A stretch of 64,000 nt of DNA, from positions 372,001 to 436,000 of the forward strand of contig NZ_CP040915.1 in assembly GCF_006352065.1 (NCBI RefSeq). The letters run 5' to 3'. This DNA is from Georgenia yuyongxinii. GTDB lineage: Bacteria > Actinomycetota > Actinomycetes > Actinomycetales > Actinomycetaceae. The notes under the pieces are model-generated. The model was not told the origin of the DNA and did not search any database. It saw nothing but the letters and a program-made list of their open reading frames with translations. Both the position numbers and the translations under genes were made by a program. Below are positions 5,234 through 39,819 of this stretch, piece after piece (position 1 is the first letter of the stretch; each line of letters starts with the position of its first letter).

Positions 5234-6478
5234 TCAGGCGCCGGGGCGGGAGGCGCGGCGCACCGGGCCCCAGGTGAAGGCGGCGACGGCGAAGGCGGAG
5301 AGGGCGAGCAGCGCGAAGCCGATCGTGTAGGCGCCGGTGCTGCTGTAGACGGCGCCCATGACGAGCGGCGGGAAGAACCCGCCGAGACCGCCGGCGGCGC
5401 CGACGATGCCGGTGACCGAGCCGACCTTGTCGGCCGGGGCGACCTTCGCCACGAGGGCGAAGCAGGCGCCCGACGCCGCACCGAGGGTCGCGGCCAGCGT
5501 CAGGAACGCGACGGTCCCGACCGGGAGCAGCTCGAGCTTGAGCGCCGCCAGGACCGCCGCCAGGCCGGCGAGCGAGAAGCACACCGTGAGGACGGGCACC
5601 GGGTGCCACCGGTCGGAGAGCCAGCCGCCCAAGGGTCGGGCGACCACGGCGAGGATGACGAAGCCCGCGGTGCGGAACGAGGCGTCGGCCCGGGTGAGGT
5701 CGTAGTCGGTGGTGAGGTAGGTGGGCAGGTAGACGCTGAAGGCCACGAACCCGCCGAAGCCCATCGCGTAGATGAGCGCAAGCTGGCGCGTGACGGGGAT
5801 CTTCAGCGTCGCGACCGTGCGGGTGAGGAGCGACCCGGCGGGTGCCGTGCGGCCCGGGGCGTCGCGAAGCAGGACCCGCGCGACGACGGCGTACGCGGCG
5901 AGCAGCACAGCGACGAGGATGAACGGGCCCGCACGGCCGAACCGCTCCGCGAGGCTCACCGTGGTGAACGCCGCGACGGCGGTCCCGGCGTTGCCCATCC
6001 CGAAGATGCCGAGCGCGGTGCCGCGCCGGGCGGGCGCGAACCAGGCGTTGACGAACGGGACGCCGACGGCGAATGCGGTGCCGCCGAGGCCGAGGAAGAA
6101 CCCGCCGATGAGGATCATGACGAAGTTGTCCGCGACCAGGCCCACGAACAGAGTGGGGATGATCGTCAGGATGCTCACGAGCGGGAACATCACCCGGGCG
6201 CCGAGCCGGTCGGTGAGCGCACCGATGGGGATGCGGCCGAGCGAGCCGACGATGACGGGCACCGCGACGGCCACCGAGAGCTGGATCGGCGTGAGCGCGA
6301 GGTCCTCCTGGTAGGTCGGTCCCAACGGACCGATGAGCGACCAGGCCCAGAAGTTGACGAAGAAGCCGATGGTGGCGAGGAGCAGCATGACGTTGGGGCG
6401 GCCCGCACTCGCCGACGTCCCGGCGGCCCGTGCCCCGGGCCGCGTACCGGGTGCGGTGCCCGCCTGCTCGGCGCTCAC
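5234..6478 (-). CDS. narK: Nitrate/nitrite MFS transporter NarK
   Basis: This MFS protein (414 residues from the GTG at 6478) imports nitrate or exchanges it for nitrite. The first membrane segment reads MLLLATIGFFVNFWAWSLIG and is followed by the NarK-like GPLGPTYQEDLALTPIQLSV. Two copies of a glycine-rich nitrate-signature-type segment are visible: GIFGMGNAGTAVAAF in TM5 and GIVGAAGGLGGFFPP in TM11, typical of the NNP family. An upstream in-frame extension to 6634 is possible but lacks family similarity. The VSAEQAG start leaves a short polar N terminus before TM1. It is the first gene of narK-narG-narH and is transcribed divergently from mogA across a 502 bp spacer, so nitrate or oxygen control probably acts there. 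Confidence 0.95.
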   Translation of the reverse strand: MSAEQAGTAPGTRPGARAAGTSASAGRPNVMLLLATIGFFVNFWAWSLIGPLGPTYQEDLALTPIQLSVAVAVPVIVGSLGRIPIGALTDRLGARVMFPLVSILTIIPTLFVGLVADNFVMILIGGFFLGLGGTAFAVGVPFVNAWFAPARRGTALGIFGMGNAGTAVAAFTTVSLAERFGRAGPFILVAVLLAAYAVVARVLLRDAPGRTAPAGSLLTRTVATLKIPVTRQLALIYAMGFGGFVAFSVYLPTYLTTDYDLTRADASFRTAGFVILAVVARPLGGWLSDRWHPVPVLTVCFSLAGLAAVLAALKLELLPVGTVAFLTLAATLGAASGACFALVAKVAPADKVGSVTGIVGAAGGLGGFFPPLVMGAVYSSTGAYTIGFALLALSAFAVAAFTWGPVRRASRPGA

Positions 6479-27544: not shown

Positions 27545-28126
27545 TCACCACAGCGCGGTCGCGTACGGGCGCGACCACAGGGCGACCTGCATGATCACCG
27601 ACTTGCGCCAGGCCTCGTGCATGGCGTCGACGTCGGCCGCGGGGGTGTCCCCCTTGGCGAGGAAGTCCCGCACGGTGGCCGTGATGGGGTAGATCAGAGC
27701 GATGAGGTAGCGCAGCGGCACGTAGGGCACCGAGGTGACACCGTCGGTCTTGTTCTTCTTCTCCGGCGTGTGGCGCTCGGCAATCTCCTCCTGGTAGGCG
27801 AGCCAGACGTCGTCGTAGGGGCGGGCGCAGGTGTCGCGGATCCACTGGCCGAAGCGGCCGCGCACGCGTTCGAGGTAGGCGGTGACCGGTTCGCCCTCCG
27901 GGGTGGAGAAGTCGGCTAGCAGGTGCGGGTTGGCGCCGACGAAGCCGTACCAGACGTCGAGGACGTCTTCCACCTGGCCGCCGAGGACCTCACCCGCCCG
28001 GCGCAGGGCGGCCTCGTCCTCGGGGCCGAAGAGCACCGACCGCTTGAGCAGCTCGAGCTCCTCCCGGGTCACCGGTGAGGGCTTGACCTCGCCGTAGTCG
28101 TAGCCCGCGATCGTTGTCTCGCCCAT
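27545..28126 (-). CDS. Protoglobin (single-domain globin)
   Basis: The 193-residue product resembles archaeal/bacterial protoglobins and the globin part of globin-coupled sensors. Features are the N-terminal GYDYGEVKPSPVTREELELLK, LGGQVEDVLDVWYGFVGANPHLL, and the F-helix region LAYQEEIAERHTPEKKNKTDG, where His is the likely proximal haem ligand, followed by VPLRYLIALIYPITATV. It ends without any signalling domain. Haem binding of O2, CO or NO is expected from the family; NO chemistry would fit a nitrate respirer. ATG 28126 follows GGGAGGAC. Just upstream is tRNA-Ser. Confidence 0.9.
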   Translation of the reverse strand: MGETTIAGYDYGEVKPSPVTREELELLKRSVLFGPEDEAALRRAGEVLGGQVEDVLDVWYGFVGANPHLLADFSTPEGEPVTAYLERVRGRFGQWIRDTCARPYDDVWLAYQEEIAERHTPEKKNKTDGVTSVPYVPLRYLIALIYPITATVRDFLAKGDTPAADVDAMHEAWRKSVIMQVALWSRPYATALW

Positions 28127-28293
28127 GGTGTCCTCCCGCGTCGTCGCGACGCCCTCACGGTAATCGCGGCGCGCCGTCGGTGGAACGCCCGATCGGGGGG
28201 CACGGCTGAGCCGGGGCATCGGTGGAGCGTGACCGGTGCCACTGCGGGCCGGTTTGGGGAGGTCTCCGGCGGGCAGGTAGCATCGCACGGCGA

Positions 28294-28379
28294 GGTAGCG
28301 TGTCCGAGCGGCCTAAGGAGCACGCCTCGAAAGCGTGTGAGGTTAACAGCCTCCGTGGGTTCAAATCCCACCGCTACCG
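28294..28379 (+). tRNA. tRNA-Ser (anticodon CGA)
   Basis: The acceptor arms GGTAGCG and CGCTACC pair, with G as discriminator. The anticodon arm CACGC-CTCGAAA-GCGTG gives anticodon CGA, which reads UCG. A long variable arm (class II) and the T arm GTGGG-TTCAAAT-CCCAC are present. CCA is not encoded (GCC follows). It is flanked by the protoglobin gene and an MFS gene. Confidence 0.97.
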
Positions 28380-28439
28380 CCGAGCCGAACGGCCCGCACC
28401 CGGGATACCGGGCGCGGGCCGTTCGCTTGTCTCCGGCCC

Positions 28440-29693
28440 TCAGCGCCGCGACCGCCGCGGCACCAGCCACCCACCCAGCCCCAGCATCCCCAGCCCGGCC
28501 ACGACCACGGTGAGCAGCCCTGCCCGCAGCCCGGCGGCGTCGGCGATGATGCCGACCACCGGTGGGGACAGCAGGAACCCGACCCGCAGCAGCCAGCTCA
28601 CCACGGTCAGGCCCGCGCCCGCCGGCAGGCCGGGCAGCTCGTCGGCCGCGTGCATGGCGGCCGGCACGAGGGTGGCCACGCCCAGACCGGCCAGGGCGAA
28701 CCCTGCGAGCGTGGTGCCCACCGTCGGCCACGCCAGTGCCAGCCCCATCCCCGCCGCGACGAGCACCCCGCCGGCGCGTACCACCGCAGCGGTGCCGAAG
28801 CGGTCGACGGCGCGGTCGCCGGTGAGCCGGCCGACCGTCATCGCGACCGACAGCGCCACGAAGCCCAAGCCAGCCGTGATGGCGTCGGCGCCGAGGTCGC
28901 CGGAGAGGTAGACGGCGGCCCAGGAGCTGCCCGCGTCCTCGACCAGGGCACCGCAGGCTGCGAGCACGCCCAGCACGGCCAGCGCCGCCACGGCGGCCCG
29001 TGGCACCCGGCCGGCCCACCGGCGCCAGCCGCGTGCAGCGGGGACGGGTGGCTCGATGACGGCGGAGGCGTTCGGGTCGGCAACGGTTGCCGGTACCCGC
29101 TCGGCGTCCTCCGGCCCAGGAAGCAGGAACCTGTACGCAACCAGCGCCACGGCGGCGAAGATCGCAGCCGCCACGGACAGGTGCGCCACCAGCGGCACCT
29201 GAAGACCCGCCGCGGCCGCACCCATCAGCCCGCCTGTGACGCTGCCGATGCTCCACACCCCGTGGAAGGAGTTGACGATCGAGCGCCCGTACAGCCGCTG
29301 CACCCGCAGCCCGTGCGCGTTCTGCGCGACGTCCACGAGGGCGTCCACCGCCCCGCCCATGAGGAGGACGACGGCGAGCAGCGCCGCCGTCGGCGCGAAG
29401 CCGATGCCCAGGATCGCCGCGGCGAGGAGCACGATGCCCAGCGCGGCGACGCGGGAGGAGCGGAACCGGCCGATGAGGGCCGCCGCGAAGAGGCCCCCGA
29501 CGAGGGCACCGAGCGGGAAACCCGCCAGGACGGTGCCGTACGCGGCGTTGCTCAGGCCCAGCTCGGCCTTGATCTGCGGGTAGCGCGGGATGACGTTGGC
29601 GAACAGTGCCCCGTTGGTGAAGAACAGGGCGGCGACGGCGAGCCGCGCCTGTCGGGCCCGGTCGGGGACCGGGCTGTCGGAGACGGCACTCAC
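28440..29693 (-). CDS. MFS transporter
   Basis: A 12-TM major facilitator of 417 residues. TM1 region LAVAALFFTNGALFANVIPR is followed by YPQIKAELGLSNAAYGTVLAGFPLGALVGG and a motif-A-like loop ALIGRFRSSRVAALG. A central polar loop (about residues 185-215) separates the two halves; the second half repeats the motif as LTGDRAVDRFGTAAVV. The pattern NVIPRYPQIKAELGLS is typical of the YbjJ/fucose-permease-like group, but the substrate is unknown. The GTG start overlaps the stop of the upstream HAD gene by 4 bp (GTGA), so the two are coupled; a sugar or phosphosugar link is possible. Confidence 0.88.
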   Translation of the reverse strand: MSAVSDSPVPDRARQARLAVAALFFTNGALFANVIPRYPQIKAELGLSNAAYGTVLAGFPLGALVGGLFAAALIGRFRSSRVAALGIVLLAAAILGIGFAPTAALLAVVLLMGGAVDALVDVAQNAHGLRVQRLYGRSIVNSFHGVWSIGSVTGGLMGAAAAGLQVPLVAHLSVAAAIFAAVALVAYRFLLPGPEDAERVPATVADPNASAVIEPPVPAARGWRRWAGRVPRAAVAALAVLGVLAACGALVEDAGSSWAAVYLSGDLGADAITAGLGFVALSVAMTVGRLTGDRAVDRFGTAAVVRAGGVLVAAGMGLALAWPTVGTTLAGFALAGLGVATLVPAAMHAADELPGLPAGAGLTVVSWLLRVGFLLSPPVVGIIADAAGLRAGLLTVVVAGLGMLGLGGWLVPRRSRR

Positions 29694-30583
29694 CGGGCGT
29701 GCCCGGCGTGCCCCGGTTGCCCGGCGTGGCCCGGTTGCCCGGCGTGGCCCGCGACGTCCCGCGAGGCGGCGGCGCGGGCGGCGAGCAGGGCCTCGACGAA
29801 CGCGGCCGCGGCGTCGTCGCCGTGGTGACCGATGTGGAGCCGCGCGACGGCCTTGACCGGTTCGCGGGCGTTGTCCATGGCCACCGGCCACCCCACCTGG
29901 GAGAGCCACGGGACGTCGTTCTCGCCGTCGCCCAGGCCGGCCACCTGGGAGGGCTCGATGCCGAGGCGGTGCAGGATCGCGGCCAGCGCCACCCACTTGT
30001 CGGCGCCCGCGGGGCCCAGCTCGAAGACGTTGTCCATCGAGCGCACGGCGCGGGGGAAGGCGGCGCGCACAGCGTCGTCGAGCTCGTCCAGGCGCTCGGT
30101 GGCGCCGAAGAGCATGGCCTTGGTGACGCCGTCGAGCGGCAGCTCGCGGAGCGGGACCTTGCGGGTGACGGAGTCCGGGTGGACGGCGACGAGGTAGTCG
30201 TAGGCGAGGCTGTCCTCGCCGACCACCATGTCCGTGGCGGTGAACACCAGCGGCTCGACGTCGGCGGCGAGGGCGAACGCGACGAGCGACTCGACGTCCT
30301 GGGCGGCCATGACGGCGGTGTGCAGCGGCTCGGCCTGCCGGGTGTCCACCGCGACGGCGCCGTTGGAGGCGATCACGTACCCGTCGATGCCGGCGGCGGT
30401 GAGGACCTCGACTGCGGCGTCGACGATGCGGCCGGTGACGACGATGGGCTCGACGCCCGCGGCGTCGAGCGCGGCCAGCGCGCGCAGCGTGCGGGGGCTC
30501 ACCATGTGGTCGGCGCCGGCCAGGGTGCCGTCGACGTCGAACGCGATCGCGCGCACGTCGAGGAGCTCGGCGGGCAGGTGCAT
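29690..30583 (-). CDS. HAD-superfamily hydrolase, Cof subfamily
   Basis: A phosphatase of about 297 residues with the IIB-type Cof cap. HAD motif I is AIAFDVDGTLAGADH (nucleophile Asp), motif II is PIVVTGRI, motif III includes the Lys in ADKWVALAAIL, and motif IV is VAGLGDGENDVPWL. The C terminus ends in an imperfect tandem repeat GHAGQPGHAGQPGHAGHAR (encoded near 29696-29752), not part of the fold. The ATG at 30583 is preferred to the GTG at 30592. It is translationally coupled to the MFS gene. The substrate is probably a sugar phosphate or nucleotide. Confidence 0.9.
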   Translation of the reverse strand: MHLPAELLDVRAIAFDVDGTLAGADHMVSPRTLRALAALDAAGVEPIVVTGRIVDAAVEVLTAAGIDGYVIASNGAVAVDTRQAEPLHTAVMAAQDVESLVAFALAADVEPLVFTATDMVVGEDSLAYDYLVAVHPDSVTRKVPLRELPLDGVTKAMLFGATERLDELDDAVRAAFPRAVRSMDNVFELGPAGADKWVALAAILHRLGIEPSQVAGLGDGENDVPWLSQVGWPVAMDNAREPVKAVARLHIGHHGDDAAAAFVEALLAARAAASRDVAGHAGQPGHAGQPGHAGHAR

Positions 30584-30732
30584 GCCCCCCACGGTAACCG
30601 GCGGCAGTCACTGCGCCGGGTGCCGGCGCCCACCCGCGCCGCAGGGTGCGCAACGTCACCGCGTGCCGCGGCGCAGGGCAGCGGGCCGTCGTCCCGACGT
30701 GCGGCAGCGGCCGGGCACGACAGAATCGGTCC

Positions 30733-31695
30733 ATGTGGAGCGCGTATTGGACGACGGCGCCCGGCCGGGGCGAGCTCCGCACGGAGCCCGCTCGCGAGCC
30801 CGGGCCGGGGGAGGCGCTGGTGCGCACGCTGCGCTCCGGGATCAGCCGCGGCACCGAGCTGCTGGTGCACCGCGGCGAGGTCCCGCCGCAGGTCGCCGAC
30901 ACCATGCGCGCCCCGTTCCAGGCCGGTGACCTGCCCGGCCCGGTCAAGTACGGCTACCTCTCGGTCGGTCTCGTGGAGGCAGGGCCGGCCGACCTGGTGG
31001 GTCGCCGGGTGTTCTGCCTGTACCCGCACCAGGACCGTTATGTCGTCCCCGCCTCGGCGCTCACCCCCGTGCCCGACGGCGTCCCCACCGACCGCGCCGT
31101 CCTCGCCGGCACCGTGGAGACCGCCGTCAACGCGGTCTGGGACGCCGCACCTCGGCTGGGCGACCGGGTCGCCGTCGTCGGCGCCGGCATGGTCGGCGGC
31201 ACGGTCGCCGCGCTGCTGCGGACCTTCCCCCTCGACCGGCTCCAGCTGGTCGACCCCAACCCCGCCCGTGCCGAGCTCGCGGCCGCCCTGGGCGTGACCT
31301 GGCGCCATCCGGACGACGCCGCCGACGGCTGCGACGTCGTCGTGCACTGCTCCGCCACCGAGGAAGGCCTGGGCCGGGGCCTCGAGCTGCTCGGCGACGA
31401 GGGCGAGCTGATCGAGCTGTCCTGGTACGGCACGCGCGAGCCCCGCGTCCCGCTCGGGGCCGGCTTCCACGCCCGCCGCCTGACGGTCCGAGCCAGCCAG
31501 GTAGGCGCCGTCGCCGTCGCGCGCCGGGCGCGCCGCACCCCCGCCGACCGGCTCGCGCTGGCGCTGCGCCTGCTCGCCGACCCGGCCTTCGACGCGTTCC
31601 TCACCGGCCGCTCCGCCTTCGCCGACCTGCCCGCCACGATGACCGCCCTGGCCGACGACCCGGCCGCACTGTGCCACCTGGTGACCTACCCCTGA
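30733..31695 (+). CDS. MDR-family (zinc-type) dehydrogenase, first gene of PTPS/GT cluster
   Basis: The 320-residue product is a medium-chain dehydrogenase/reductase: the N-terminal GroES-like part has GEALVRTLRSGISRGTELLV and the C-terminal Rossmann part has RVAVVGAGMVGGTVAALL (GxGxxG) and VVVHCSATEEGLGRGLELLG. The usual catalytic-zinc Cys after the first strand (CGxD) is replaced by ISRGTE, so a catalytic zinc is doubtful. It ends 8 bp before the PTPS-like gene, with its stop inside that gene's ribosome site. By context it would oxidise or reduce an intermediate built from the GTP cyclohydrolase product; that is inference. Confidence 0.85.
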   Translation: MWSAYWTTAPGRGELRTEPAREPGPGEALVRTLRSGISRGTELLVHRGEVPPQVADTMRAPFQAGDLPGPVKYGYLSVGLVEAGPADLVGRRVFCLYPHQDRYVVPASALTPVPDGVPTDRAVLAGTVETAVNAVWDAAPRLGDRVAVVGAGMVGGTVAALLRTFPLDRLQLVDPNPARAELAAALGVTWRHPDDAADGCDVVVHCSATEEGLGRGLELLGDEGELIELSWYGTREPRVPLGAGFHARRLTVRASQVGAVAVARRARRTPADRLALALRLLADPAFDAFLTGRSAFADLPATMTALADDPAALCHLVTYP

Positions 31696-31703
31696 GGAGC
31701 CGT

Positions 31704-32081
31704 ATGTACCGCCTGACCGTGCGCGACCACATGATGGTGGCCCACTCCCTGCCGCACCCCGCCTTCGGACCGGCCCAGCAGCTGCACGGCGCCACGTTCG
31801 TCGTCGAGCTGACCTTCCTGCGCGCGGAGCTGGGGGAGGAGGCGATCGTCATCGACATCGGGGAGGCCACCACCCTGCTGCGCGAGGCGCTGGCGGATCT
31901 GGACTACTCCAACCTCGACGACCACCCCGACCTGGCCGGGGTGCTCACGACCACCGAGACGCTGGCGCGAGTGGTCGCCGATCGGGTAGCTGCCCGGCTG
32001 CCTGGCGGCCGCTACGCGGGCCTGGAGGTGACCTTGCGCGAGCACCCCGACGCCTGGGCCACGTACTCCCTCGACCTGTGA
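31704..32081 (+). CDS. 6-pyruvoyltetrahydropterin synthase / QueD-like protein with altered active site
   Basis: The 125-residue product has the PTPS/QueD tunnelling fold signature: MYRLTVRDHMMVAHSL (first zinc His region), QQLHGATFVVELTFL (second His; normal HGHxY reads HGAT), IDIGEATTLLREALADLDYSNLDD (equivalent of xDFxxLK...LDHxxLN), TTETLARVVADRV (PTxExxA-like) and REHPDAWATY (the conserved pterin-binding Glu). The protein has no cysteine at all, so the catalytic Cys of PTPS/QueD is missing, and one zinc His is Ala. It may therefore do a different lyase/isomerase step. ATG 31704 has TGAGGAG in front. Its stop overlaps the glycosyltransferase start (GTGA). Confidence 0.85.
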   Translation: MYRLTVRDHMMVAHSLPHPAFGPAQQLHGATFVVELTFLRAELGEEAIVIDIGEATTLLREALADLDYSNLDDHPDLAGVLTTTETLARVVADRVAARLPGGRYAGLEVTLREHPDAWATYSLDL

Positions 32082-33241
32082 CGCGCCTGGCGCTGGTCAC
32101 CTGGACGGCTCGCGAGCCGTCCGGCGGCAACACCTTCAACCGCGAGCTGGTCGATGCGCTGCGCGCCGGGGGAGCGGACGTCACCATCCGCGCCGTGCCG
32201 GGCGAGTGGCCGACGGCGGCGCCTGCCGACCGTGCGGTGCTTGCCGCAGAGCTGGCCGCTGCGCGCGCCCGGGACGAGACGGTACTTGTCGACGCGATCG
32301 TGGCCTGCGGGGCGCCGGCCGAGGTGGGTGCGGCCGTCGCGGCCGGGACCACGGTGGCAGTGCTGCTGCACATGCTGCCCTCCGACGTCGCCGGGCTGGC
32401 CGTGGCGGAGCGGCAACGGCGGGCCGCGGCGGAGGCCGCCGCGCTGCGGGCGGCTTCGGTGGTGATCTGCCCGAGCAGCGCCGCGGCAGAGGACCTCGTG
32501 CGCCGCTACGGCGTGCGGGCGCACGTGGCCGCGCCGGGAACCCGGCCCGTACCGCCGGCCGCGGGGACCCGGCCGCCCGCACCGCCGGCCGTGGGAACCC
32601 GGCCGCCCGCACCGCCGGAGCTCATGGCGCTGGCCAACCTCGTCCCCGGCAAGGACCAAGTCACCCTGGTGCGTGCGCTGGCCCAGGTCCGCGACCTCGC
32701 CTGGACCGCGCGCCTCGTGGGCGCCACGGGCGTGGACCCCGCCTACACGGCGGTGGTGCGCGGCGAGATCGCGGCGGCGGGACTGACGGACCGGGTGACA
32801 CTCACCGGGGCGAAGGTTGGTGCGGCGCTGGAGGCCGAGTGGGCACGCACGGACCTGCTCGTGCTGTCGTCCCGGTCGGAGACATTTGGTCTGGTAGTGC
32901 TCGAGGCGCTCGCCCACGGGGTGCCCGCCGTGGTGCCGGCGGGGACGGGAGCGGTCGAGGCGCTGGCGTCCGGCTCAGTGGGAGCGGGAGGTCTCAGCGG
33001 ACGGGCGCCGGACGGGGCCGTGCCGCCGGGCCGGGCCGTGGCGACCGACCCAGCCGAGCCGCCGGGCCGGGCCGTGCCCCCGGGCGACCCCGACGCGCTC
33101 GCGGCCACGTTCCGGGAGTGGTTGACCTCGCCGCCCCTGCGTGACGCGTGGGCCGCCGCCGCTCGGGAGCGACGCGGCCGGCTGCCCGGCTGGGACGTCA
33201 CAGCCGCGCAGGTCCTCGCGGCGCTGGCACAGCCAATGTGA
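32078..33241 (+). CDS. GT4-type glycosyltransferase in PTPS cluster
   Basis: A GT-B glycosyltransferase of 387 residues, lacking a signal peptide. The N-terminal acceptor domain opens TRLALVTWTAREPSGGNTFN; the C-terminal donor domain shows LVPGKDQVTLVRALAQV and the nucleotide-sugar motif SRSETFGLVVLEALAHGVPAVV (E-x7-E). The domain linker (about residues 150-180) is a Pro-rich tandem repeat of GTRPPAPPAV type. Another Pro/Gly/Arg-rich insertion lies near residues 300-335. It overlaps the PTPS-like gene by 4 bp, so dehydrogenase, PTPS-like and GT are one coupled operon. The acceptor is likely the small molecule made by the cluster rather than a lipid or cell-wall glycan, but this is inferred. 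Confidence 0.88.
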   Translation: MTRLALVTWTAREPSGGNTFNRELVDALRAGGADVTIRAVPGEWPTAAPADRAVLAAELAAARARDETVLVDAIVACGAPAEVGAAVAAGTTVAVLLHMLPSDVAGLAVAERQRRAAAEAAALRAASVVICPSSAAAEDLVRRYGVRAHVAAPGTRPVPPAAGTRPPAPPAVGTRPPAPPELMALANLVPGKDQVTLVRALAQVRDLAWTARLVGATGVDPAYTAVVRGEIAAAGLTDRVTLTGAKVGAALEAEWARTDLLVLSSRSETFGLVVLEALAHGVPAVVPAGTGAVEALASGSVGAGGLSGRAPDGAVPPGRAVATDPAEPPGRAVPPGDPDALAATFREWLTSPPLRDAWAAAARERRGRLPGWDVTAAQVLAALAQPM

Positions 33242-33297
33242 GCCGGTGCGGCACGGGCTCCACCCCTCGGTCGAGCACCGGGCACGCCCACGGGCCA

Positions 33298-33370
33298 ATG
33301 ACATCTCCCGGAGAAGATGACTTCTCACTGAGAAGACGACATCTCCCGGAGAAGATGACATCTCGCGGGA
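33298..33370. repeat. Dispersed palindromic element, copy 3 (between GT4 and RibA-RibD)
   Basis: Units ATGACATCTCCCGGAGAAG, ATGACTTCTCACTGAGAAG, ACGACATCTCCCGGAGAAG and ATGACATCTCGCGGG follow one another with a period of about 20 bp, so this copy is itself a tandem array. It lies between convergent stops (33241 and 33401). Confidence 0.8.
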
Positions 33371-33400
33371 AGGGGCGGGGGCGTGCGGGGCGGTGCGGGG

Positions 33401-34774
<1,374 letters not shown>

Positions 34775-34833
34775 CCGCACAGATTGGCACACGCACCCGC
34801 GATGAGCAGCGCGATGACTGCTCGTGCCGCCTT

Positions 34834-34892
34834 GCCGGGCCAGGCAGCGCCCCTCCGCGCGCCGCAAGCCGGGCCAGGCAGCGCCCCTCCGC
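34834..34892 (+). repeat. 25-bp direct repeat upstream of RibA-RibD fusion
   Basis: GCCGGGCCAGGCAGCGCCCC followed by TCCGC occurs at 34834-34858 and again at 34868-34892, directly after the GATase stop and before the RibA-RibD gene. It may be a duplicated terminator-type or regulatory segment. Confidence 0.8.
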
Positions 34893-34895
34893 TGC

Positions 34896-35630
34896 TCAGT
34901 CCCGTGCGTAGCGGGCGACGAAGTTGCGCAGCACCCGGAACGGCATGTCCACCTGCGAGTCACGGCAGGCGCGCTCGACGGCCTCTTGCTCGCCGGGCGG
35001 GAAGTAGCCGGCGTCGCGGTAGATCTGGACACGCTCGAGCAGCCCCATGACGTCCAGCTCGGGGTGGAACTGGGTGCCGTAGAGGTTGTCCTTGATCCGG
35101 AACATCTGCACCGGGCAGGCCGCAGAGGTGGCGAGCAGCACGGCGCCCTCGGGCATCGAGGTCATGGCCTCCTTGTGGCCCACGAAGGCTTGGAACCGGC
35201 GCGGCATGCCGGCCAGGAGCGGGTCCGCGGCACCGTCGTCGGTCACCTCGATCCACGGGGCGCCGATGTTCTCGGCGTAGGTGCCGTCGATGGTCGCGCC
35301 CTGGTGCCGGCCGAGGGTACCGACCCCGTAGCAGGCGCCGAGGAAGGGATAGTCCTCGGCGACGACGACATCGAGCAGGCCGGCGAGCTCGGCCTCCACC
35401 CTTCGCTGGGTGTCGCTCTTGTGCTCAACCGGGATGGACCCCGTGTAGGGACTGCCGCCGACGAAGATGCCGGAGTAGTCGGCCAGCGACACCGGCGGCA
35501 TCGGTGCCGAGTCCAGCCGCACGCGCACGAGGTCACGCTCGGTCAGGCCGCCGTAGCGCAGGAAGGCCCGGTACTCGCTGTCGGCGGCGGCGTCCTCGGG
35601 CCGCGTCGCCAGGAGCAGGAAGGGTCTCAC
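34896..35630 (-). CDS. Class I glutamine amidotransferase-like protein
   Basis: A 244-residue GATase-1 domain protein (GuaA-type fold). The nucleophile elbow is FLGACYGVGTLG (Cys), and the His-Glu pair is in YGTQFHPELDVMGL. IFVGGSPYTGSIP forms the oxyanion region. There is no synthetase domain, so it either supplies ammonia to a partner or acts as a gamma-glutamyl peptidase. It lies 122 bp upstream of, and on the same strand as, the RibA-RibD fusion, so it may belong to the same cluster; a 25-bp repeat intervenes. The GTG start at 35630 begins at the first conserved strand. Confidence 0.85.
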   Translation of the reverse strand: MRPFLLLATRPEDAAADSEYRAFLRYGGLTERDLVRVRLDSAPMPPVSLADYSGIFVGGSPYTGSIPVEHKSDTQRRVEAELAGLLDVVVAEDYPFLGACYGVGTLGRHQGATIDGTYAENIGAPWIEVTDDGAADPLLAGMPRRFQAFVGHKEAMTSMPEGAVLLATSAACPVQMFRIKDNLYGTQFHPELDVMGLLERVQIYRDAGYFPPGEQEAVERACRDSQVDMPFRVLRNFVARYARD

Positions 35631-36042: not shown

Positions 36043-36165
36043 CGGTGCCTCCTGCCGCCAGGATGACACGCGGCGCGGTCGGGGTCCGCGCCGTGGCTAC
36101 TCTTGCCACCCGAGCCGGCCCCTCGATCACGTGGGCGCAGGGTGAACGAGCATCGGGAGGTCGCC

Positions 36166-37512
36166 GTGGGCGTAGAGGCAAGAAGATTCGCTGGCTGGAA
36201 GCTGCACGGCGACGGGCGGCACATCAGCCCCGGTACCGTCGTCGCCCCTGACGAGCGGCTGAGCTGGCCCGCCACCATCGGCATCGGCGCACAGCACGTG
36301 GTGGCCATGTTCGGGGCGACGTTCCTCGTCCCGCTCATCACCAACTTCGACCCCGCCACCACCTTGTTCTTCTCGGCGGTCGGCACCCTGCTCTTCCTCG
36401 TCATCACCGGCGGGCGGGTGCCGAGCTACCTCGGGTCGAGCTTCGCCTTCATCGCACCCATCGCCGCGGCATCCAACCTGTTCGGCCAATCCTCCGCGCT
36501 GGGCGGCATCATCTCCGTCGGCGTGCTACTCGCGATCGTCGGCCTGGTGGTCCACTTCGCCGGGGCGAAATGGATCGACATCGTCATGCCGCCCACCGTC
36601 ACGGGGACGATCGTCGCGCTCATCGGTTTTAACCTGGCCCCAGAGGCGTGGAACAACGTCAAGCTCGCGCCGCTCACCGCAGTGGTGACCATCGCATCTA
36701 TCGTCCTGATCACCGTGCTCTTCCGCGGCCTGGTCGGCCGGCTGTCGATCCTGCTCGGCGTCCTCATCGGCTACGCCACCGCCGCGATCCGCGGTGAGGT
36801 GGAGTTCGACGCCGTTCGCGACGCCCCCTGGTTCGGTCTGCCCGACTTCACCGCACCGACCTTCGAGCCCGCCACCCTGGGGCTGTTCCTGCCCGTGGTG
36901 CTCGTCCTGATCGCCGAGAACGTCGGCCACGTCAAGTCCGTCGCCGCGATGACGGGCCAGAACCTCGACGACGTCACCGGGCGGGCACTGTTCGCCGACG
37001 GGGTCGCCACCGTGCTCGCCGGCTCCGGCGGTGGCTCCGGCACCACGACCTACGCGGAGAACATCGGCGTCATGGCCGCGACCCGCGTCTACTCGTCCGC
37101 GGCGTACCTGGTGGCGGGCCTGGTGGCGTTCCTGCTGAGTATGTCGCCAAAGTTCGGCGCCGTCGTCGCGACGATCCCGGCCGGGGTGCTCGGTGGGGCC
37201 GCGACCGTGCTCTACGGGATGATCGGCATGCTGGGCGTGCGCATCTGGGTGCAGAACCGGGTGAACTTCTCTGACCCGGTCAACCTCAACACCGCCGCCA
37301 TCGCCCTGGTGATCGGGATCGCGAACTTCACCTGGGTGGTCGGCGACATGCGCTTCGAGGGCATCGCGCTCGGCTCGGCCGCCGCGCTGCTGATCTATCA
37401 CGTCATGCGCCAGATCGCGCGGGCCCGCGGCACGAGCCAGGAGGCTGCGTCCCCGGCGTCGGCGCCCGCGGGCACGGAGCTCGAGGAGGGCTCGTTGCGC
37501 CGCGAGCAGTGA
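36166..37512 (+). CDS. uraA: NCS2 uracil/xanthine permease
   Basis: A nucleobase:proton symporter of 448 residues. Recognisable segments are IGIGAQHVVAMFGATFLVPL (TM1 with the QH motif), GGRVPSYLGSSFAFIAPIAA (TM3), LVLIAENVGHVKSVAAMTGQN (TM8, with the substrate-binding Glu and the AENxGH motif of UraA) and AGSGGGSGTTTYAENIGVMA (TM10, TYAEN). The GTG at 36166 has GGGAGG 5 nt upstream and is preferred to further-upstream starts. Uracil is the likely substrate, matching upp for salvage. Confidence 0.93.
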   Translation: MGVEARRFAGWKLHGDGRHISPGTVVAPDERLSWPATIGIGAQHVVAMFGATFLVPLITNFDPATTLFFSAVGTLLFLVITGGRVPSYLGSSFAFIAPIAAASNLFGQSSALGGIISVGVLLAIVGLVVHFAGAKWIDIVMPPTVTGTIVALIGFNLAPEAWNNVKLAPLTAVVTIASIVLITVLFRGLVGRLSILLGVLIGYATAAIRGEVEFDAVRDAPWFGLPDFTAPTFEPATLGLFLPVVLVLIAENVGHVKSVAAMTGQNLDDVTGRALFADGVATVLAGSGGGSGTTTYAENIGVMAATRVYSSAAYLVAGLVAFLLSMSPKFGAVVATIPAGVLGGAATVLYGMIGMLGVRIWVQNRVNFSDPVNLNTAAIALVIGIANFTWVVGDMRFEGIALGSAAALLIYHVMRQIARARGTSQEAASPASAPAGTELEEGSLRREQ

Positions 37513-37632: not shown

Positions 37633-39819
37633 ATGGTCAAGGACGACGGCGTGAGCGGGGCGGGTGGCGCGGTGGCGTTGGCCTTTCCCTCGGTCCGCGT
37701 CGTGGAGTCCGGCGGCACGTTGATGGTGCACCTGTCGGTGCCCGAGGCGGCGTTGGGAACGGCGGCCGCTGAGGTCGCCGTGGACATGACCGAGCTGGTG
37801 CTTTCCGCGCCGTGGTGGGACCGGTACGAGGAGCTCGCCGCAGCGGCCGCGACAGCCAGCGCCGCGGTCAGCGACACCGCCGCGGCGAGCGGCCCGGCCG
37901 CCGCCTCCGACACCGTCGCGTTTACCGCCGAGTCTCCGTCCGCGGACGCATCCGCATCAGCGGACGCGGACGGGGCCGGCTGGTTCGCCGACCTCGACAC
38001 CCGTTCGAGCGACGGCGACCCGGTAGCCGGCCACCGCTCCGGCCCGGGCGAGGCGTCCGCGCTGGGTCAGCCCGGCCCGGCCGCCGCGGGGCTCGACTTC
38101 GTCGCCAGTTCTGGCCCGGTTGTCGGCGATGACCTGGGCGCCGACAACGCCGACGCGGTGCCGGAGGGCCTAGAGGCGGAGGTGGAGGACCCGCCGGGGG
38201 TGCGTGAGGAGTGGGAGTCGGGGTACGGGCTGACGTCGGCGCCGGCGGTCTTCCTCGAACGCCTCGCCCCGGGTGGGCGGTTGGCCTCGGTGCTGGGCGG
38301 GATGTGCGTCGGTGACGCGGACGACGCCACGATCGTCGAGGCGATCGCCGGCGCGGAGCGGTTGGCGTCGTGGGCGATGGCCGTCCAGGCCCGCGCGGTG
38401 CGTGAGCTGACCGACCGGCGGGGCCCGACCTCCCTGGCCCTGACCAGTGCCGGCGCGGAGATCTCCGCCCGGTTGGGCATCACCGGTTACGCCGGGCAGG
38501 CCAAGGTCCACTTCGCTGCCGGGCTGGACCTGTTCCCCGAGGTCGCCGACGCCCTGACCACCGGCCGGATCGACAAACGCAAGGCCGACGTGCTCCTCAA
38601 CCGTGAGGACGGGCTGTCCGTGGCCGACCACCGCAAGGTCGTCGCCGACATCCTCGGCGTGCCGATCCGCACCCACCTCCACCCCGACCACCCCACCACC
38701 GACACCGACACCGACACCGCCGGTGCCGGCGCCGGCGCCGGTGGCGGCGGCGACCAGCCGGATTCGGACACCGCCGACACCACCGCCACCCCTGACCAGG
38801 ACGCCACACAGGCGGATGCGGTCACAGACGGCGACGCCATCGACACGGACACGGACACCGCCGACGCGGACGCCGCGGACGCCGATGCCGATGTCGATGC
38901 CGACGTGGAGGGTGCGGAGGCGGTGGCGGTGACGTTGGGGGTGGAGGACCTGACCGGGTCGCAGCTACGTGATCTTCTGCGTTGGGCGGCGGTGGATGCC
39001 GGTGGTGTCGACGCCGCGACCAAACGCCGGGAGAAGGCCTTCGCCGACCGCCATGTGCGGTTCGAGCCCGCCCCGGAGAACATGGCGTGGGTCTCGGCGT
39101 TCATCCGCGCCGACCAGGCCGGGGCCACCCGGATCTGTCTCGACGCCCTCGCCCACGCGGCCAAGGGCCCCAACGACCTCGACACCCGCACCCTGGACCA
39201 ACGCCGCGCCGACGTCTTCACCGACCTGTTCACCACCGTGCTCACCCGCGGCGTCGACCTCGACGGCCACGAGCTCCCCACCTACCACGGGGTCAAACCC
39301 CAGATCCAGGTCACCATGGCCGCCCCCACCCTCCTGGGCCTGGACGACGAACCCGCCCAGCTCGGCGGGTACGGCCCCATCCCCGCCGACCTCGCCCGCG
39401 AGATCGCCCAGGACGGCACCTGGCGTGGCCTGTTCACCGACGCCACCGGCTGCTTCCGCGCCCTGGGGTCGAAGAAGTACCGCCCCGGCGCGGACCTGAC
39501 CCGCCAGGTCATCGCCCGCGACATCCAATGCACCTTCCCCGGCTGCCGCCAACCCGCGTGGAAGGCCGACCTGGACCACATCGCGTCCTACGACCCCGCG
39601 ATCGCCGAGCTGATCGAGCAGACCACCAAGATCCGCCTGCAGGCCCTGTGCCGGCGCCACCACAACCTCAAGACCAACAAATGGTGGACCGCCACCCGCG
39701 AGGAGACCACCGGCAACATCATCTGGACCGCCCTGACCGGGCACACCTACATCCGACCACCGCCCAAACCCCTCGGCAAACGCCTCCCCCCACCCAGCGA
39801 CGACGACCCGCCCTACTAA
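37633..39819 (+). CDS. DUF222 / HNH endonuclease (13E12-type) protein
   Basis: A 728-residue member of the actinobacterial DUF222-HNH family. DUF222 spans about residues 185-560 (EAIAGAERLASWAMAVQARA, GQAKVHFAAGLDLFPEVADA). The C-terminal HNH domain has CTFPGCRQPAWKADLDHIAS and LCRRHHNLKTNKWW, with the Cys pairs and His-Asn-His of the nuclease. Two low-complexity inserts are unusual: an Ala/Asp-rich N-terminal stretch (about 70-120) and an Asp-Thr/Asp-Ala alternating linker (about 356-435) built from short GACACCGAC-like repeats. Such genes are often multi-copy and repetitive in actinobacterial genomes; the cellular role is unknown. ATG 37633 is close to AAGGACG-like sequence, not a strong ribosome site. 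Confidence 0.85.
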   Translation: MVKDDGVSGAGGAVALAFPSVRVVESGGTLMVHLSVPEAALGTAAAEVAVDMTELVLSAPWWDRYEELAAAAATASAAVSDTAAASGPAAASDTVAFTAESPSADASASADADGAGWFADLDTRSSDGDPVAGHRSGPGEASALGQPGPAAAGLDFVASSGPVVGDDLGADNADAVPEGLEAEVEDPPGVREEWESGYGLTSAPAVFLERLAPGGRLASVLGGMCVGDADDATIVEAIAGAERLASWAMAVQARAVRELTDRRGPTSLALTSAGAEISARLGITGYAGQAKVHFAAGLDLFPEVADALTTGRIDKRKADVLLNREDGLSVADHRKVVADILGVPIRTHLHPDHPTTDTDTDTAGAGAGAGGGGDQPDSDTADTTATPDQDATQADAVTDGDAIDTDTDTADADAADADADVDADVEGAEAVAVTLGVEDLTGSQLRDLLRWAAVDAGGVDAATKRREKAFADRHVRFEPAPENMAWVSAFIRADQAGATRICLDALAHAAKGPNDLDTRTLDQRRADVFTDLFTTVLTRGVDLDGHELPTYHGVKPQIQVTMAAPTLLGLDDEPAQLGGYGPIPADLAREIAQDGTWRGLFTDATGCFRALGSKKYRPGADLTRQVIARDIQCTFPGCRQPAWKADLDHIASYDPAIAELIEQTTKIRLQALCRRHHNLKTNKWWTATREETTGNIIWTALTGHTYIRPPPKPLGKRLPPPSDDDPPY

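What the first reader, a model, noticed from the sequence alone, without database searches (positions are those of the whole stretch)
30733..35630. Candidate uncharacterised pathway: GTP cyclohydrolase II-RibD fusion, PTPS-like, MDR dehydrogenase and glycosyltransferase together
A coupled plus-strand operon (dehydrogenase, PTPS-like, GT4) converges on a minus-strand GTP cyclohydrolase II-RibD reductase fusion and a GATase. The first enzyme would open GTP to a pyrimidine; the PTPS-fold protein, dehydrogenase and glycosyltransferase would modify and glycosylate it. Riboflavin, queuosine or tetrahydrobiopterin synthesis do not need this set. Extra GTP cyclohydrolase II isozymes with PTPS neighbours are known from Streptomyces, but I know of no assigned product.
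Basis: partly seen in the sequence, partly recalled or inferred. Interest (0 to 1): 0.78.

Follow-up and report, generated by a model that had tools for sequence, protein, structure and literature searches.

The report
Uncharacterised GTP-derived metabolite gene cluster
A small set of bacterial genes that opens the ring of GTP and seems to attach a sugar to the product recurs in many bacteria and is kept even in this strain, which lacks two key vitamin B2 genes, so it most likely makes a different, still unknown compound.

Summary
Observation confirmed. Window 30733-34774 holds an MDR dehydrogenase, a PTPS-fold protein and a GT4 (+), convergent with a GTP cyclohydrolase II (GCHII)-RibD reductase fusion (-). 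Of 80 loci found only through the PTPS protein, 72 have MDR and GT4 within 8 kb (66 collinear), 51 a RibD-type reductase and 40 a GCHII. About half or more also carry CDP-alcohol phosphotransferase, LPG-synthase-TM and methyltransferase genes, absent here. The GATase is genus synteny. The PTPS protein belongs to the SCO6650 (PDB 3d7j) subfamily, which lacks the catalytic Cys and a Zn ligand: this is a variant of a Streptomyces locus known but, as far as I know, unassigned. The fusion is the genome's only GCHII match, yet DHBP synthase and lumazine synthase give none, so riboflavin is very unlikely to be its purpose here. Related clusters fall into two types: GCHII switch residue Tyr with RibD_C and no creatininase, or Met/Leu/Ile/His with creatininase and no RibD_C (a single clade). 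Best reading: a dedicated pathway from GTP via a 2-amino-4-oxopyrimidine to a glycoside. Product unknown; every chemical step is inferred.

The parts
30733..31695 (+). MDR-superfamily dehydrogenase, probably Zn-independent (S-x-G-T-E where Zn enzymes have Cys; no Cys among columns conserved in 93% or more of 81 rows)
31704..32081 (+). PTPS-fold protein of the SCO6650/3d7j subfamily; FGPAQ and HGAT in place of the catalytic Cys and HGH motif
32078..33241 (+). GT4 family glycosyltransferase
33401..34774 (-). GTP cyclohydrolase II (34172-34726) fused to a RibD reductase domain (33422-34042); switch residue Tyr (AYALQD); no deaminase domain
   Evidence: (relatives)
29690..30592 (-). Cof-type HAD hydrolase, neighbour; in 10 of 12 Georgenia-group loci; possible phosphatase of the pathway, not core
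   Evidence: 2 of 80 loci
34896..35630 (-). Glutamine amidotransferase (PRK07567-type), neighbour by genus synteny, not core
36103..37512 (+). NCS2 nucleobase permease, neighbour by genus synteny, not core

Best explanation
A dedicated pathway, not riboflavin synthesis, that draws on the GCHII product. Proposed steps: (1) GCHII opens GTP to 2,5-diamino-6-ribosylamino-4(3H)-pyrimidinone 5'-phosphate (predicted from an intact GCHII domain with the Tyr switch residue). (2) The fused RibD_C domain reduces the ribosyl to a ribityl chain without prior deamination (inferred: no deaminase domain in the protein; similarity to 2,5-diamino-type reductases). (3) The PTPS-fold protein binds the remaining 2-amino-4-oxopyrimidine edge through its conserved Glu and, with the MDR dehydrogenase, changes the side chain or closes a second ring (inferred; reaction unknown). 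(4) GT4 adds a sugar (inferred). In many other lineages a methyltransferase and membrane genes suggest methylation and attachment to, or passage across, the membrane; their profiles do not match in this window. Shown here: gene content, co-occurrence, residue changes, no match for ribB and ribH. Inferred: every chemical step.
For: Co-occurrence: MDR+PTPS+GT4 in 72 of 80, with RibD_C or creatininase in 60 of 80, with GCHII in 39 of 80. Host: one GCHII match, no DHBP synthase, no lumazine synthase, models that ring in 14 of 14 controls; its one FMN riboswitch precedes an ABC permease and an NMT1/THI5-like binding protein. G410 likewise keeps the five genes without DHBP synthase. All 9 genus genomes plus G410, G411, G416 keep MDR, PTPS, GT4, RibD_C and GCHII together. 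In G400, G401, G402, G411, G416 the DHBP synthase has no GCHII domain and the cluster GCHII is the only one, which fits a GCHII that makes the ordinary product. GCHII over the ribA cut-off (219.4 against 205.85 bits). Nearest PDB chains of the reductase half: 6p8c, named 2,5-diamino-6-ribosylamino-4(3H)-pyrimidinone 5'-phosphate reductase, 98.5 bits, then 7lrh RibD, 91 bits.
Against: No product, no biochemistry. RibD_C is absent from all 17 non-Tyr clusters, so reduction may not be essential or may be done by an unlinked enzyme (not searched). GCHII is not near the trio in about half of the 80 loci, and five Nesterenkonia loci have neither GCHII nor RibD_C nearby. The window RibD_C scores about equally on the general RibD_C model (117), the archaeal-type reductase (104.5) and bacterial RibD (101), all below cut-off. 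Five Streptomyces loci carry the PTPS protein with no partner. Riboflavin synthase and RibD deaminase were not searched in the host; the genome is rated 98% complete.
Confidence: 0.55

Rival explanations
1. The fusion is simply this organism's riboflavin enzyme (RibA plus reductase) and its neighbours are incidental.
For: It is the only GCHII match in the genome; in five relatives it is probably the only GCHII available to the DHBP synthase-bearing riboflavin operon.
Against: No match for DHBP synthase or lumazine synthase in the host; G410 also lacks DHBP synthase; five genus members keep the fusion beside a separate GCHII at the DHBP synthase; neighbours conserved.
Confidence: 0.1
2. The functional unit is MDR-PTPS-GT4 alone; GCHII and RibD_C are frequent but dispensable neighbours that raise the supply of a pyrimidine or flavin precursor used elsewhere.
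For: The trio is in 72 of 80 loci, with GCHII in 39 of 80; Nesterenkonia has the trio without GCHII or RibD_C nearby.
Against: RibD_C or creatininase accompanies the trio in 60 of 80; kept in all 12 Georgenia-group genomes examined, including two without DHBP synthase. A host without its own cluster GCHII could use RibBA for the same step.
Confidence: 0.2
3. A classical pterin route (BH4, queuosine or a folate-type pterin) with a diverged PTPS enzyme.
For: PTPS fold (85 bits); T-fold Glu kept.
Against: Ala replaces the catalytic Cys in 45 of 45 aligned members and the third Zn-ligand His is Ala in 90% or more; QueD and 6PTHBS models score 42.6 and 35, far below cut-offs 89.25 and 125.5. I recall that SCO6650 was reported inactive as a PTPS.
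Confidence: 0.05
4. A cyclitol or sugar pathway in which MDR (and creatininase in sister clusters) act as in inosose metabolism and the GCHII has another role.
For: Weak matches: MDR to IolM (19.2 bits window, 21.9 L049), creatininase to IolN (57.5 bits), GT4 of L046 to MshA (72.3 bits).
Against: All far below curated cut-offs; no creatininase in the 30 Tyr-type loci.
Confidence: 0.05

Closest known systems
Streptomyces coelicolor SCO6650-SCO6655 locus (SCO6650 = PDB 3d7j; SCO6655 listed as GTP cyclohydrolase II)
   Same: PTPS protein of one subfamily (profile E 2.9e-65). The loci nearest to 3d7j (L123-L126, L128; 86-94% identity) carry MDR, PTPS, GT4 and GCHII in the same arrangement of the core.
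   Different: Those loci have Met at the GCHII switch, a creatininase, CDP-alcohol phosphotransferase, methyltransferase and LPG-TM genes and no RibD_C in the stretch; the window has Tyr, a GCHII-RibD_C fusion and none of the others. The S. coelicolor locus itself was not read here; its neighbourhood is inferred from relatives and recall.
Riboflavin RibA/RibBA and RibD
   Same: GCHII and reductase domains.
   Different: No deaminase domain, no DHBP synthase domain; host without DHBP and lumazine synthase matches.
QueD / 6-pyruvoyl-tetrahydropterin synthase (COG0720; PTPS-I to -III in PMC5041015, passages)
   Same: Fold family (PF01242).
   Different: No catalytic Cys, HGAT instead of HGH.
BrbF / ArfB formylamino-pyrimidine deformylases
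   Same: BrbF, annotated as creatininase, deformylates the formylamino-pyrimidine (PMC9478397, passages); sister clusters hold a creatininase (PF02633, 214 bits).
   Different: The sister-cluster enzyme is nearest to MftE (133 bits, cut-off 172), ArfB only 36.5 bits; none in the window.
Vicine/convicine synthesis in faba bean
   Same: A GCHII domain starts a non-riboflavin pathway (PMC12202586, passages); that vicine is a pyrimidine glucoside is recalled.
   Different: Plant pathway; no PTPS-fold or MDR partner known to me.

Membership tests
SCO6650-SCO6655-type cluster | PTPS protein of the 3d7j subfamily | tested here: met
SCO6650-SCO6655-type cluster | MDR and GT4 collinear with PTPS | tested here: met
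   window; relatives (66 of 80)
SCO6650-SCO6655-type cluster | GCHII beside the trio | tested here: met
SCO6650-SCO6655-type cluster | non-Tyr GCHII with creatininase | tested here: not met
   Tyr (AYALQD); no creatininase match in the window. Hence variant, not the same type.
GTP cyclohydrolase II | three Zn-Cys and the switch Tyr | tested here: met
   ECLTGD...RCDCG and AYALQD aligned with 4i14; residue roles recalled; ribA model over cut-off
GTP cyclohydrolase II | GTP to diaminopyrimidine activity | not testable with these tools
   needs assay
Riboflavin pathway | DHBP synthase and lumazine synthase in the genome | tested here: not met
   (controls 14 of 14)
Riboflavin pathway | riboflavin synthase and RibD deaminase in the genome | not tested
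   no search made
PTPS/QueD enzymes | catalytic Cys and HGH Zn motif | tested here: not met
2,5-diamino-type pyrimidine reductase | over the curated score of TIGR01508 | tested here: not met
   104.5 against 186.45 bits; RibD_C fold itself met (Pfam 133 bits)

The most novel reading that the evidence does not exclude
The cluster makes a class of GTP-derived compound not yet described: a ribityl-aminopyrimidine or 8-ribityl-pterin glycoside, handled by a Zn-free PTPS-fold enzyme, and in many lineages methylated and linked to or moved across the membrane by the CDP-alcohol phosphotransferase and flippase-like genes, serving as an envelope-associated cofactor, pigment or signal in several phyla. 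Georgenia would keep the soluble short form.
Probability: 0.3. Interest if true: 0.85.

Novelty: new variant of a known kind. Interest (0 to 1): 0.6.

Why it matters
The Streptomyces locus with a solved PTPS homologue (3d7j) and an unusual GCHII has no assigned product that I know of. Two results make it testable. A host with no match for two riboflavin genes keeps the whole set, so its GCHII fusion can be studied without the vitamin pathway in the way. And related clusters split into two consistent enzyme sets (Tyr-GCHII with RibD_C; non-Tyr GCHII with creatininase), which predicts the first intermediates. The set is widespread, so the product may be a common but overlooked bacterial metabolite.

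Tried and rejected
GATase, NCS2 permease and MFS gene as members: genus synteny only. Repeated independent recruitment of GCHII: a first tree suggested it, but four rows were wrongly labelled RibBA (L163, L185, L186, L187); relabelled and rebuilt in careful mode without L186 (copy of L203) and L118 (odd composition), one clade for all cluster-type GCHIIs is not rejected (p-AU 0.156). Independent recruitment of RibD_C: two deep lineages, but too few and too distant outgroups to decide. Many independent switches of Tyr with creatininase: rejected, the 17 non-Tyr rows lie on one side of a branch (88/90), so the link counts as one event. Promoter/terminator scan: none found. Structure prediction of the PTPS protein was asked three times and never ran; no fold search was made. 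Papers: locus tags and family combinations in the open library gave no paper with a product in the rows shown (30 of 244, 2 of 2, 25 of 318; 0, 0, 9 of 9, 20 of 597, 1 of 1, 10 of 110). The papers on SCO6655 and SCO6650 by Bandarian and co-workers are recalled and were not seen.
Full report
What is there. The window is G000:C1:372001-436000 of a 4.17 Mb single-contig genome rated 98% complete. The nearest named loci by the PTPS protein are Georgenia (86 and 82% identity). On the plus strand lie an MDR-type dehydrogenase (30733-31695), a PTPS-fold protein (31704-32081) and a GT4 (32078-33241, 4-base overlap). Convergent on the minus strand is a 457-aa protein with GTP cyclohydrolase II and a RibD reductase domain (33401-34774), then a glutamine amidotransferase (34896-35630).

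Is it a unit? Profiles were built from seeds and these loci plus 8 more (creatininase). Within 8 kb of the PTPS gene: GT4 in 75 of 80, MDR 72, RibD_C 51, LPG-synthase-TM 48, methyltransferase 47, CDP-alcohol phosphotransferase 47, GCHII 40, sulfatase-like 31, creatininase 10. MDR, PTPS and GT4 are together in 72 of 80 and collinear in 66 of 80. Sixteen of the 80 have short flanks; in the other 64 the trio is in 59. Against: five Streptomyces loci hold only the PTPS protein (L086, L095, L097, L100, L106) and five Nesterenkonia loci have no RibD_C or GCHII in the stretch. Most of the loci are Actinomycetota; the named isolates Kushneria aurantia, Jiella pelagia and Zoogloea sp. carry it too. Loci labelled Bacteroidetes, Acidobacteria and Myxococcales are metagenome bins and may be mis-binned. 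In 396 genomes drawn from the window's phylum, 61 have a PTPS match at E 1e-8; 9 of these (own included) are over 50% identical and over 100 bits. All 9 have MDR and GT4 beside it and 8 of 9 have GCHII in the fetched stretch. The ninth, G008, has a second GCHII on another contig that groups with cluster-type GCHIIs at modest support.

Riboflavin. The only GCHII match in the genome is the fusion. DHBP synthase and lumazine synthase give no match, though both models ring in 14 of 14 control genomes. The one FMN riboswitch (94.4 bits) precedes an ABC permease and an NMT1/THI5-like binding protein, which I recall as the make-up of the RibXY uptake system. The strain is therefore very likely a riboflavin auxotroph; riboflavin synthase and the RibD deaminase were not searched. 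Of 19 genomes with the PTPS gene, 17 have DHBP synthase (in G434 as two pieces); G000 and G410 have none. G396, G397, G398, G399 and G403 have a second GCHII beside the DHBP synthase; G400, G401, G402, G411 and G416 have DHBP synthase without a GCHII domain, G411 with what reads like its C-terminal tail. All 9 genus genomes and G410, G411, G416 keep MDR, PTPS, GT4, RibD_C and GCHII together. In the G400-type genomes the fusion may feed riboflavin as well; in G000 and G410 it is kept for something else. Eight further genomes with the PTPS gene all have DHBP synthase and at least two GCHII matches.

The PTPS protein. In 45 aligned members (window plus 44 of the 80 loci) His14, His28, Phe21-Gly22-Pro23-Ala24-Gln25 and Thr31 are invariant; Ala24 stands where PTPS enzymes have the catalytic Cys, and Ala30 (90% or more) where HGH has its second His; Glu113 is kept in 90% or more (roles of these positions recalled). 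QueD and 6PTHBS models score 42.6 and 35 bits, below cut-offs 89.25 and 125.5. PDB 3d7j, SCO6650, is of the same subfamily (E 2.9e-65). I recall, and could not read here, that this structure lacked Zn and PTPS activity, and that SCO6655 makes the formylamino-pyrimidine because a Met replaces a Tyr.

Two cluster types. Switch residue Tyr: 30 loci, creatininase 0 of 30, RibD_C 29 of 30 (not L112). Met 10, Leu 4, Ile 2, His 1: 17 loci, creatininase 15 of 17 (L060 and L075: the contig ends before its usual place; L056 only a partial match), RibD_C 0 of 17. Unread: L089 (frame broken; creatininase) and L118 (RibD_C). The 39 loci without GCHII have no creatininase. The loci nearest to 3d7j (L123-L126, L128) are all Met type with creatininase. 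The non-Tyr GCHIIs form one clade, 88/90, so this is one evolutionary event. BrbF of Sinorhizobium, annotated as a creatininase, was shown to deformylate the formylamino-pyrimidine (PMC9478397, passages). The sister-cluster enzyme is a creatininase (214 bits), nearest to MftE and weakly like ArfB, so deformylase is an inference. If right, both types deliver the same diaminopyrimidine. Why the second type has no RibD_C is unexplained.

Other partners. The MDR has S-x-G-T-E where, as I recall, Zn-dependent relatives have Cys, and no Cys among columns conserved in 93% or more of 81 rows. The methyltransferase, LPG-TM, CDP-alcohol phosphotransferase, sulfatase-like and creatininase profiles do not match in the window; the rest of the genome was not searched for them. 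The Cof-type HAD gene is in 10 of 12 Georgenia-group loci and could be the phosphatase, but in 2 of 80 loci overall, both Georgenia.

Mechanism. Best reading: GTP to a 2-amino-4-oxopyrimidine that is never deaminated, so that the PTPS-fold protein can hold its guanine-like edge, then redox change of the side chain and glycosylation. All chemistry is inference. Expression hints, weak: SCO6655 and SCO2687 stand in a list of genes whose expression runs against predicted flux, most of which are raised in stationary phase (PMC2853524, passage); SCO6652 stands in a table on mycelium types (PMC3610822, passage; column meaning not seen; which gene it is was not checked).

Verdict. The kind of cluster was already known from Streptomyces; this is a distinct variant (GCHII-RibD_C fusion, Tyr type, no membrane genes in the window) in a host that very likely cannot make riboflavin.

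Noticed in passing
L188:6364-6493 (-), G000:C1:2170364-2170493: The genome's one FMN riboswitch precedes an ABC permease and an NMT1/THI5-like binding protein (RibXY-like), not rib genes.
   Followed up: partly
L210, ORF around 5581-6156 (+): In G411 the DHBP synthase is followed by what reads like the C-terminal tail of a lost GCHII domain.
   Followed up: partly
L086, L095, L097, L100, L106 (PTPS match): Five Streptomyces loci carry a PTPS protein of this subfamily (75-82% identical to 3d7j) without any other cluster gene in the stretch.
   Followed up: partly
window 27545-28288 (-): Protoglobin (PF11563, 97.6 bits) beside a tRNA-Ser at 28294-28381.
   Followed up: no
window 37633-39819 (+): DUF222 protein of 728 aa with a long acidic, Asp/Thr-rich repeat-like stretch.
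   Followed up: no
G000, 15 places listed: The genome holds 15 RibD_C matches over cut-off although DHBP and lumazine synthase are not found.
   Followed up: no
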